From: Pseudomonadota bacterium | GTDB lineage: Bacteria; Pseudomonadota; Gammaproteobacteria; UBA1113 | NCBI GenBank assembly: GCA_021782065.1 | Contig: JAJXVQ010000064.1 | Coordinates: forward strand, 1-6,437 | Direction of reading: 5' to 3' | DNA length: 6,437 nt | In this document: positions 640-3,817 of the stretch, in pieces | How the letters are laid out: each line of letters begins with the position of its first letter | How positions within the stretch are numbered: position 1 is the stretch's first letter | Notes under the pieces: model-generated | Databases searched by the model: none | What the model saw: the letters and a program-made list of their open reading frames with translations, nothing else | Told to the model about the DNA's origin: nothing | Position numbers and translations under genes: made by a program

Positions 640-677
640 CAACAAAGCCTAAGAATCAAATGCGAAGAATGTATACT
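640..677. repeat. Direct repeat copy 1 (38 nt), partial tandem unit
   Basis: This copy begins CAACAAAGCCTAAG and ends GTATACT. It is repeated at 765-800 with identical sequence except for an extra AT inside it (669-670 region), so the copies are 38 and 36 nt with starts 125 nt apart. It starts seven bases after the ygfA stop codon. It matches the right end of the palindromic element that follows, so it looks like the remnant of a preceding, truncated unit of the same element in tandem. No coding potential is seen. Confidence 0.9.
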
Positions 678-799
678 CACAGCAGTTGATTTTTAGGCGA
701 GGCGCCCAGCCCTCGAGCACCAGGAATGTAGTACTCTACATGACTGGTGCGAGATGGGTGCAGGCAACAAAGCCTAAGAATCAAATGCGAAGAGTATAC
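671..799. repeat. Nested imperfect palindrome, about 129 nt (MITE- or REP-like element)
   Basis: Almost the whole segment can fold on itself. The paired arms, from outside in, are 671-678 with 792-799 (8 bp, GTATACTC/GAGTATAC), 682-684 with 786-788, 686-698 with 772-784 (13 bp, one G-T pair), 702-708 with 755-761 (7 bp, one G-T), 712-714 with 751-753, 717-723 with 744-750 (7 bp) and 726-731 with 736-741 (6 bp, closing a TACT loop). Tandem G-A mismatches at 724-725/742-743 separate the last two arms. That is about 51 base pairs. It lies between two convergent genes, where it could serve as a bidirectional transcription end, although neither strand has a good T-tract. Non-autonomous miniature transposons and REP/BIME elements have this kind of architecture, but no transposase or second complete copy is in the window, so the family is not identified. 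Confidence 0.8.
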
Positions 800-800
800 T
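765..800. repeat. Direct repeat copy 2 (36 nt), right arm of the palindrome
   Basis: Second copy of the 640-677 repeat, lacking the 2-nt AT insertion. It forms the right-hand arm of the 671-799 palindrome. Its last two bases (799-800) are also the last two bases of the tdh stop codon read on the minus strand, so the repeat abuts and slightly enters the tdh reading frame. Confidence 0.9.
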
Positions 801-1821
801 ACCAGTTTAAAATAACTTTACCAGCCTGGCCCGATTGCAACACCTTAAAGGCTTCATCAAAATCTTCCATTGCAAATTGATGGGTAATAATGGGACTTAC
901 GTCTAAACCATCGCGTAGTAAAGAAGACATCTTATACCAAGTTTCAAACATCTCGCGGCCATAAATACCTTTGATGAAAAGGCTTTTAAATATGACCTGA
1001 CTCCAATCGATTGCCTGCTCTCCTGGAATAATGCCCAATAAAGCAATGCGTCCGCCGTGATTCATAGTGACTAGCATTTGTTGTAAGGCCTGAATTTTTC
1101 CCGACATTTCTAAGCCTACATCAAAACCTTCCACAATCTTCAATTCTGTCATTACATCTTTTAACGATTCCTTTTCAATATGCACAGCACGGGTAGCACC
1201 CATTTTTTCGGCCAAAGCTAAGCGATATGGATCTACATCTGTGATTACCACATTGCGTGCGCCTACTCTTAAAGCGATACGAATCGCCATTAACCCAATG
1301 GGACCTGCGCCAGTAATCAACACATCTTCCCCGACTAAATCAAAAGAAAGTGTCGTATGTACTGCATTGCCCAAGGGATCTAAAATAGCCCCTATGTCAT
1401 CATTAATATAGGGTGACAATTTAAAAACATTGCTTGCGGGCATACTGAGATATTCTGCAAAAGCTCCGGGACGATTTACTCCTAACCCCAAAGTATTGCG
1501 ACACAAATGTCGGCGCCCAGCGCGGCAATTACGACAATGTCCGCAGGTAATATGCCCTTCGACTGATACGCGATCGCCAACGGCAATGCCACTGACTTCA
1601 CTGCCTATGGCTTCTACTATACCCATGCACTCATGACCTACCGCCATAGGCACTGGAATGGTTTTTTGTGCCCATTCGTTCCAGGAATAAATCTGCAGAT
1701 CGGTACCGCAAATCGCTGCTTTTTTGACTTTGATTAAAACATCATTAGGGCCATATTCCGGTACAGCGATATCTTGTAACCACAAGCCGCGTTCTTTTTT
1801 TGCTTTGACTAATGCTTTCAT
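799..1821 (-). CDS. tdh: L-threonine 3-dehydrogenase (zinc-dependent, NAD+)
   Basis: A 340-residue cytosolic medium-chain dehydrogenase that oxidises L-threonine to 2-amino-3-ketobutyrate with NAD+, the first step of threonine breakdown to glycine and acetyl-CoA. All expected ligands are present at E. coli numbering: Cys38 (in ICGTD), His63 and Glu64 (GHE) for the catalytic zinc; Cys93, Cys96, Cys99 and Cys107 for the structural zinc; and His90 near the active site. The Rossmann loop GAGPIG lies at 171-176, with acidic Asp195 at the end of the second strand as expected for NAD+. The length matches E. coli Tdh (341), except that the protein ends at Trp340 where E. coli has one more Asp; the stop codon falls at the edge of the adjacent repeat. 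The ATG overlaps the kbl stop by four bases (ATGA), implying translational coupling. No strong separate Shine-Dalgarno is seen. Confidence 0.97.
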
Positions 1822-3253: not shown

Positions 3254-3817
3254 ATGGACCACAATATAGATGATTTAGAGAATGAATTGAAAAGAGCTGA
3301 ATTAGAGCTAGCGCAAATTGAACATGAAATGTTGCAACAAATTGCTGAGGCAGAAGCCAATGCCAAAGCCGATTTGGAAAAAGCAGTTGCTAAAGCTTAT
3401 GCCGATGGCATGAAAAAAGCCTTAAATGAGCTAGAAGAACCTCTGCAAAAACAACGTAAAGCTTTGGCTGCCGCTGTAGCCGCTGCTGAAAAAGCTGCTA
3501 AAAAAGTAGTCAAAGTACCGGCCGTGAAGAAAGCTCCAGCTGCGAAAAAAGCTGCTGCAGCCAAAAAGCCAGCCGCTGTAAAGAAAGCCGCTCCTAATAA
3601 AGCAGCACACGCGGCGGCAAAGGCCCCTGCAGCTGTTAAAAAGCAGCCTGTAATGCCTGTTGCACCAGTGGGTAGCTTGCATGAAAAGCGCCTGGGTATA
3701 CTAGAACGTGAATTTAACCCTATTAAATCTGCGCGCAATAACGCTGCTTTAGAAGATAATGCCGTTAAAGATTTTGCCAGTTTAGATGAAATCTTGAACA
3801 AAGGCGATTGGTCTTAA
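3254..3817 (+). CDS. Coiled-coil protein with histone H1/AlgP-like Lys-Ala-Pro tail, function unknown
   Basis: A 187-residue soluble protein with no signal peptide or membrane segment; I do not recognise a named family. Residues 1 to about 75 are charged and helical, with a heptad pattern (Leu8, Leu12, Ala15, Leu19, Ile22, Met26), so an acidic-then-mixed coiled coil that probably oligomerises. Residues 78-130 are low-complexity Ala/Lys/Pro. KK pairs recur exactly every six residues (92-93, 98-99, 104-105, 110-111) and again at 129-130, each after an AAV/AAA-type run. Residues 131-187 form a non-repetitive, more acidic tail (EREFNPIKSARNN ... DEILNKGDWS). The basic repeats resemble AlgP of Pseudomonas and bacterial H1-like proteins, suggesting nucleic-acid binding, but this is inference from composition. 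The start is supported by AGAGGA at 3241-3246, 7 nt before ATG 3254. It has its own promoter and terminator, so it is monocistronic. Confidence 0.85.
   Translation: MDHNIDDLENELKRAELELAQIEHEMLQQIAEAEANAKADLEKAVAKAYADGMKKALNELEEPLQKQRKALAAAVAAAEKAAKKVVKVPAVKKAPAAKKAAAAKKPAAVKKAAPNKAAHAAAKAPAAVKKQPVMPVAPVGSLHEKRLGILEREFNPIKSARNNAALEDNAVKDFASLDEILNKGDWS

What the first reader, a model, noticed from the sequence alone, without database searches (positions are those of the whole stretch)
671..799. Multi-tiered palindrome of about 129 nt between convergent genes
Seven successive paired arms, including one of 13 bp and an outer 8-bp GTATACTC/GAGTATAC, line up in perfect nested order over the whole 129 nt. 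The arms are separated only by small symmetric loops. That cannot be chance and is far larger than a terminator needs. Tandem G-A mismatches near the tip are also a known stabilising motif in nucleic acid helices. It resembles a miniature inverted-repeat element or an intergenic structural repeat; the family is unknown to me.
Basis: partly seen in the sequence, partly recalled or inferred. Interest (0 to 1): 0.72.

Follow-up and report, generated by a model that had tools for sequence, protein, structure and literature searches.

The report
ERIC-type mobile palindrome beyond the enterics
The palindrome is one of dozens of copies of a small mobile DNA repeat that is a distant relative of ERIC, the well-known repeat of gut bacteria and vibrios, and the folded middle of this repeat turns up in many other groups of proteobacteria.

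Summary
Confirmed and identified. The palindrome at 671-799 is a 123-bp element (674-796, TACTC...GAGTA) between two TA dinucleotides. Its genome holds 46 BLAST matches, 35 of them distinct near-full-length copies; all five congeners searched have a match, G002 only a partial one. Ends of 59 copies suggest a TA target duplication; the two empty sites found fit only roughly. Over 34 sequences the hairpin keeps 96.8% of pairs, with both-sided changes at 21 of 43.

It is homologous to ERIC. A covariance model built without ERIC finds E. coli ERIC end to end (73.8 bits) and ERIC-type elements in other genomes; a sequence-only model does too, on the same strand.

In this genus copies between co-directional genes are sense 28:4; 27 ERIC loci gave 9:10. 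No IS630-type or Y1 transposase was found in the host bin; the mobiliser stays unknown.

The 83-nt cap (693-777) matches 143 of 369 class genomes in 94 families, often inside palindromes with other outer arms. No Rfam family matched the loci tested.

The parts
674..796 (+). Mobile element proper, 123 bp, TACTC...GAGTA; one long interrupted hairpin
   Evidence: Termini of 59 copies, empty-site lengths, fold
672..673 (.). Left TA of the presumed target-site duplication
   Evidence: Outer TA present on the left in 43 of 59 copies and on both sides in 34 of 59
797..798 (.). Right TA of the presumed target-site duplication
   Evidence: Outer TA present on the right in 44 of 59 copies
693..777 (+). 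Cap (core hairpin) shared with ERIC and the wider superfamily
   Evidence: R3 match 72.1 bits, model 1-83
671..678 (+). Outer left arm GTATACTC (one host base, then TA, then element end)
   Evidence: Sequence; pairs with 792-799
792..799 (+). Outer right arm GAGTATAC
   Evidence: Sequence; pairs with 671-678
640..668 (+). Solo right-arm fragment of a second copy, identical 29 of 29 to 765-793
   Evidence: Letters; similar arm-plus-element junctions in L002 and L005
40..633 (+). 5-formyltetrahydrofolate cyclo-ligase gene upstream (neighbour, not part of the element; start codon not checked)
   Evidence: PF01812, E 2.5e-45
799..1821 (-). Zinc alcohol dehydrogenase gene (probably threonine 3-dehydrogenase, by inference from the neighbour); its stop codon abuts the right TA
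   Evidence: PF08240/PF00107; ORF

Best explanation
It is a copy of a non-autonomous mobile element homologous to ERIC. Shown here: many dispersed copies; conserved ends with TA on both sides in most; copies absent from matching sites in sister species; a hairpin kept by compensatory change between subfamilies; sequence homology to ERIC on the same strand, end to end. Inferred: insertion duplicates a TA; it moves as DNA by a transposase supplied in trans that reads the TACTC/GAGTA ends; once inside a transcript the + strand folds into a long hairpin that can act on the mRNA, and copies lying antisense inside co-directional gene runs are lost, giving the 28:4 orientation bias. At this locus it sits 38 bp past one stop codon (counted to the left TA) and its right TA abuts the other, so read-through from either gene would put a hairpin at the 3' end of the mRNA.
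For: Copies: 46 matches, 35 distinct near-full-length, in a 2.02-Mb bin; 9 of 51 genomes match, the own one and all 5 congeners among them. Ends: inner TA 49/59 left and 56/59 right, outer TA 43/59 and 44/59. Absent from matching sites: one copy in G004, one in G003. Structure: 96.8% of 1461 cells paired, 95 both-sided cells against 18.6 shuffled, 0 of 500. ERIC homology: R1, built from 34 sequences without ERIC, hits E. coli ERIC at 73.8 bits over all 132 positions and, in 28 of 398 phylum genomes, mostly families f183 (11), f184 (8) and f139 (4), elements that read as ERIC in the 11 genomes looked at. Sequence-only R2 hits all 12 ERIC loci given, E 1.4e-12 to 2.2e-6, on the ERIC strand; 11 of the 12 had been chosen as R1 hits, L085 had not. 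Global alignment of the window copy to ERIC scores 42 against a maximum of 31 in 300 shuffles. Orientation: 28 same, 4 opposite, p 1.9e-5.
Against: No candidate transposase: PF13358 in none of the 6 genomes of this genus; PF01797 in neither G000 nor G004, one match each in G001 and G003, the latter with stops; the bin is 83.6% complete. The better empty site reads AAG where a TA is expected, so a substitution must be assumed; the other has 13 unmatched bases on its left. The window copy aligned locally to ERIC scores 42, below the shuffle maximum of 48; blastn finds it in no E. coli genome; an HMM from 58 same-genus copies does not hit ERIC. Rare departures from pairing within the genus show no G-U over A-C preference (19 against 22), so selection on the RNA fold of resident copies is not detectable. 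ERIC loci show no orientation bias (9:10).
Confidence: 0.83

Rival explanations
1. An unrelated MITE or palindrome that resembles ERIC only because both are TA-flanked hairpins of about 127 bp.
For: Local alignment of the window copy with ERIC lies within the shuffle range; no blastn match in E. coli; HMM of same-genus copies misses ERIC.
Against: Sequence-only model finds 12 of 12 ERIC loci given on one strand; copies from G039, G010 and G040 align locally to ERIC above every one of 300 shuffles, while their reverse complements do not (in global mode the reverse complement of G040 also exceeds its shuffles, as a palindrome may); R1 leaves 341 of 369 class genomes without a match.
Confidence: 0.06
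2. A REP-like element moved as single-stranded DNA by a Y1 (RAYT/IS200) transposase, the hairpin being the substrate.
For: Strand-specific orientation bias and a conserved hairpin would suit single-stranded DNA mobility; two congeners, G001 and G003, have one PF01797 match each.
Against: PF01797 found in 5 of 17 genomes, not in G000, G004, G186, G292 or G331, which carry several copies each; a TA duplication is not expected of that mechanism (recalled).
Confidence: 0.06
3. Kept mainly by the host as an RNA element (3' mRNA stabiliser or decay signal) rather than as a selfish repeat.
For: Sense bias 28:4; published ERIC effects on mRNA stability in Yersinia, orientation dependent (passages of PMC2229807).
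Against: No sign of selection on pairing in rare variants; copies are as close to 5' ends as to 3' ends in G000 (within 30 bp: 12 of 22 and 14 of 26 distances); 12 of 57 classified sites are divergent; copies differ between species at matching sites; no intrinsic terminator signature at this copy.
Confidence: 0.15

Closest known systems
ERIC / IRU / RU-1 (enterobacterial repetitive intergenic consensus)
   Same: About 127 bp with TA at the ends, single long stem-loop, multicopy, collinear sequence on the same strand (ERIC's properties from passages of PMC2229807 and PMC2759123)
   Different: Host family handle f1 is not that of the genomes where R1 finds ERIC (f183, f184, f139); outer arms diverged; sense bias not seen in 27 ERIC loci
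RUP of Streptococcus pneumoniae (IS630-linked MITE)
   Same: Small, non-coding, TA target, terminal repeats (passages of PMC2229807)
   Different: No IS630-type (PF13358) match in the six genomes of this genus; sequences not compared
QMITEs of Coxiella burnetii
   Same: Small MITEs of a gammaproteobacterium (passages of PMC10969869)
   Different: QMITE2 is described with direct repeats of 7-9 bp and terminal repeats of 23-29 bp; here TA, 2 bp; sequences not compared
BRE, betaproteobacterial repeat of about 90 bp
   Same: Size close to the 83-nt cap; dispersed and tandem (section read, PMC3110155)
   Different: Its sequence is not in the text, so relation to the cap is untested

Membership tests
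ERIC | Collinear sequence homology end to end on one strand | tested here: met
   R1 73.8 bits over 132/132 positions, opposite strand 23.1; sequence-only R2 24.7 bits for L085, up to 42.9 for L218
ERIC | About 127 bp with TA at both ends | tested here: met
   123 bp plus two TA = 127; outer TA 43/59 and 44/59
ERIC | TA duplication on insertion | tested here: inconclusive
   Termini fit; one empty site has the right length but AAG in place of TA, one is disturbed on the left
ERIC | Single long stem-loop | tested here: met
ERIC | Host in Enterobacteriaceae or Vibrionaceae (distribution given in a review, passages of PMC10969869) | tested here: inconclusive
   Host family f1 differs from f183 and f184, but families carry no names; relatives are named only Proteobacteria or Gammaproteobacteria bacterium
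ERIC | Orientation-dependent effect on mRNA stability | not testable with these tools
   Needs expression data
IS630-derived MITE | Matching transposase in the genome or genus | tested here: not met
   PF13358 in none of G000-G005
REP/RAYT | Y1 transposase present in the host | tested here: not met
   PF01797 absent from G000; present in 5 of 17 genomes, among them G001 and G003 of this genus
Any Rfam family | Match of the element to a family | tested here: not met
   Window: none at gathering or at E up to 1 for 600-860; 40 relatives' loci: only rRNA and SRP RNA neighbours (at gathering, at E up to 1)

The most novel reading that the evidence does not exclude
ERIC is one branch of a proteobacteria-wide superfamily of palindromic repeats built from two exchangeable modules: a conserved cap of about 83 nt, whose helices covary while loop residues (AGGCG opposite CAAC, GA opposite GA, GGA opposite UGA) stay nearly fixed, and outer arms that differ by type (TATACYC, AGGGC-CTCTA, GTTGTTGAAAAA and others). 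The fixed loop residues would be read by a widespread protein or be a functional RNA fold, and the arms by different mobilising enzymes.
Probability: 0.55. Interest if true: 0.82.

Novelty: new variant of a known kind. Interest (0 to 1): 0.66.

Why it matters
ERIC was described in 1990-91 and how it moves had not been worked out in the papers seen here (PMC2229807 and PMC2759123, both 2007, passages). Placing it in a far wider family changes where to look: hosts with many copies and sister species for empty sites, a shared cap that can be used as bait, and arm types that can be compared with insertion-sequence ends. The sense bias in this genus is a testable sign that one orientation costs the host more than the other. 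If the cap really is one family, an unexplained structured element lies in over a third of the sampled genomes of the class (143 of 369), and no Rfam match was found for the 40 loci tested.

Tried and rejected
Known RNA family: no match. Intrinsic terminator: 0 found in 560-900. Plasmid or phage carriage: the window copy and the L112 and L114 copies have no plasmid match, and the L114 copy no phage match; the window copy was not searched in phages. IS630-type and Y1 transposases as mobiliser: not supported. RNA-strand selection through G-U over A-C: looked strong in the small alignment, but in 98 copies rare variants split 19:22 and only shared states differ (259 against 55 cells), so I dropped it as proof. 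RU-2 and RU-3 as cap carriers: by eye their printed sequences do not show the cap. A search for cap strings in papers returned 39 papers; the 15 listed were unrelated by title and abstract, the other 24 were not seen. Searching G004 with L101 gave no empty site because 10,871 bases are 100% identical between the two bins.

Rows dropped: the 37 rows include 2 that are the same copies read on the other strand. One search counts only copies with CTC...GAAGAG ends. One search classified 57 of 73 sites at ORFs of 100 aa or more and 46 of 73 at 150; the rest lay at contig edges or over 400 bp from an ORF. One of its clusters merges 9 classified copies through repeats in their flanks. One search left the 5 loci L227-L231 out of the ERIC orientation count.

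Full report
Observation. The window is 6,437 bases of a 2.02-Mb, 50-contig genome bin, 83.6% complete. Between two convergent genes lies a nested palindrome, 671-799, z -8.7 against dinucleotide shuffles, 0 of 200 as stable. The genes are a 5-formyl-THF cyclo-ligase and a zinc alcohol dehydrogenase; the latter is preceded on its strand by an aminotransferase-fold gene, so the pair is probably kbl-tdh (inference). The left TA lies 38 bp past the first stop codon, and the right TA (797-798) abuts the other stop codon (799-801).

Copies. A search of the same genome with 640-830 gives 46 matches. Aligning them leaves 35 distinct near-full-length copies; the 37 rows include two copies read twice. 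The rest include fragments and short forms of about 60 bp that have lost the middle. Some copies are in tandem, sharing TATA. In 51 genomes including the own one, 9 match: the own genome, all five congeners (G002 only 84 bases of one copy), and three genomes of other genera (G010, G039, G040). Two congeners have public records, JAJXVU01 (Proteobacteria bacterium BP5.bin43) and VFJV01 (Gammaproteobacteria bacterium Bin_72_2): their handles G051 and G052 give matches at the same coordinates as G004 and G003. No closer taxonomy was available, and that the class of the searches is Gammaproteobacteria is inferred from these names.

Ends and insertion. In 59 distinct copies with CTC...GAAGAG ends, the inner TA is present in 49 (left) and 56 (right), the outer TA in 43 and 44, both outer in 34. 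The inner TA is therefore best read as part of the element and the outer as a target duplication. One copy (L098:9731-9858) is absent from G004. The site there reads GGTGATCC-AAG-TCACC against GGTGATCC-TA-[element]-TA-ATCACC; removing the element and one TA leaves the same length, but the empty site has AAG and no TA, so a substitution must be assumed; the matching stretch of G001 has GTGAC-TA-GGTCAC. A second copy is absent from G003, whose site has a TA fitting the right junction, but the filled site has 13 extra bases on the left. At the window's own locus G003 has the element (98%), G004 has other, probably coding, sequence in its place, and none is seen in G002.

Structure. For 34 sequences from four genera (A1: the window's genus and one each of G010, G039, G040), RNAalifold predicts 43 pairs. 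96.8% of cells pair against 88.6% in shuffles; 21 pairs and 95 cells change on both sides against 9.6 and 18.6; 0 of 500 shuffles reach any of these, and sliding the partners drops pairing to 32-42%. Relatedness inflates the shuffle comparison; the slid controls keep relatedness. Within 98 copies of the genus, rare one-step departures are G-U 19 and A-C 22, so no strand preference is seen there; shared states differ (259 against 55 cells), but these reflect few ancestors and, in part, misalignment of a subfamily with another tip.

Identity. I recalled ERIC from its length and ends and tested it. A typed consensus finds ERIC in 5,376 of 5,426 E. coli genomes, and one copy was fetched (L085). 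By local alignment with 300 shuffles each, the G039 copy scores 64 (shuffle maximum 37), G010 57 (45), G040 50 (41), but the window copy only 42 (48); in global mode the window copy also scores 42, above its shuffle maximum of 31. blastn of the window copy finds nothing in E. coli, and an HMM of 58 same-genus copies misses ERIC while one of 64 with the distant kin hits it at E 0.0012. The covariance model R1, built without ERIC, hits L085 over all 132 positions with 73.8 bits, 23.1 on the other strand. In 398 genomes of the phylum it matches 28: the own one, 11 of family f183, 8 of f184, 4 of f139, 1 of f202 and 3 outside the class. The best copies of 11 of these genomes were read and look like ERIC; that f183 and f184 are the enteric and vibrio families is inferred from this and from genome size. 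A model with no base pairs (R2) still finds 12 of 12 ERIC loci given, E 1.4e-12 to 2.2e-6, on the ERIC strand; 11 of the 12 had been picked as R1 hits, L085 had not. Sequence homology therefore does not rest on both being palindromes.

How it works. PF13358 (IS630-type) was found in 4 of 17 genomes, none of the six of this genus and none of G040, G117, G186, G292, G331. PF01797 (Y1) was found in 5 of 17, not in G000, G004, G186, G292 or G331, but once each in G001 and, with stops, G003. A DDE enzyme of another kind acting in trans is my inference from the TA flanks. In this genus 98 copies fall into 73 sites; of 57 classified with ORFs of at least 100 aa, 28 lie between co-directional genes in the sense orientation and 4 antisense (p 1.9e-5), 12 divergent, 9 convergent, 4 inside an ORF in the same sense; with 150 aa 21:3 of 46 classified. 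Gene calls are simple longest-ORF calls. The 27 ERIC loci gave 9:10; f30 gave 4:0, f31 3:3, f106 3:2. So the bias is a trait of this lineage, perhaps of f30 too, and not of ERIC at large. Selection against antisense copies is the simplest reading; insertion bias is not excluded. For ERIC, passages of a review report orientation-dependent mRNA destabilisation through RNase E in Yersinia (PMC2229807; the primary paper is not held).

Wider family. Some of R1's weaker hits in 28 of 369 class genomes share the middle but not the ends. I aligned 40 middles, ERIC included, and built R3 (83 positions). In 139 kb of host stretches with the window, R3 gives 14 matches at E up to 1, all at known copies. 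In the class sample it matches 143 of 369 genomes at E up to 1e-3, 112 at 1e-8, in 94 families (79 at 1e-8). In the phylum sample it matches 121 of 398, of which 58 lie outside the class by my count of the listing. Twenty loci from 17 of the genomes with strong matches were fetched; in all 20 the predicted fold holds the cap, but the outer arms differ: AGGGC..CCTCTA type, GTTGAAAAA type, and others. Over 32 aligned caps, 20 of them these new ones, 94.9% of cells pair, with 122 both-sided cells against 38.7 shuffled; two of the five measures did not exceed the shuffles, and the alignment is fitted to the model and leans towards it. AGGCG, GGA, TGA, CAAC and the second GA are kept in at least 90% of rows, the first GA in at least 70%. 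Named carriers seen by blastn and R3 are Halomonas and Pseudomonas veronii plasmid records (49.1 and 38.8 bits) and, weakly, an E. coli record (26.3). Conversely L128 and L133 have ERIC-like ends and stalk around an unrelated middle, which suggests that the modules can be exchanged. R3's E-values are rough and the model was trained partly on R1's own weak hits, so this part is less certain than the ERIC identity.

Novelty. In the paper searches made (open-licence library only, listings and passages) I saw no report of ERIC outside enterics and vibrios, and a review gives those two families (passages of PMC10969869). PMC2267715 (passages) lists new stem-loop families in pseudomonads and bordetellae that may hold cap elements; their sequences were not compared. 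So the element is a new, distant branch of a known kind, and the superfamily is a proposal.

Noticed in passing
L098:3804-3945 and 11285-11620; L034, L041: A second dispersed palindromic repeat in the same genome, with GGGGATCCAG/CTGGATCCCC arms and GAGGATGACAA ends; present in G000 but absent from the matching G004 site at L098:3804-3945.
   Followed up: no
G000:C49 5001-15871 and G004:C33 1-10871: 10,871 bases are 100% identical between two bins whose other long shared stretches are 76-93% alike, which points to a contig binned twice.
   Followed up: no
L120:1501-1630: In G071 an element of this kind lies between the 23S and 5S rRNA genes, on the same strand, so it is probably transcribed with them.
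   Followed up: partly
L128:1501-1687 and L133:1501-1667: Palindromes with ERIC-like ends and stalk but an unrelated, longer middle, seen among the weak R1 hits.
   Followed up: no
window 640-668; L002, L005: Right arms or their ends directly before full copies share the odd junction GCGAAGAAT-nTATA instead of GAAGAG-TATA at three loci; origin unexplained.
   Followed up: no
L036, L038, L040: Short forms of about 60 bp that keep both arms and lose the middle, one pair in tandem and one pair in duplicated surroundings.
   Followed up: no
window 3254-3817: A 187-aa protein with an Ala/Lys-rich, histone-like middle and no Pfam match.
   Followed up: no
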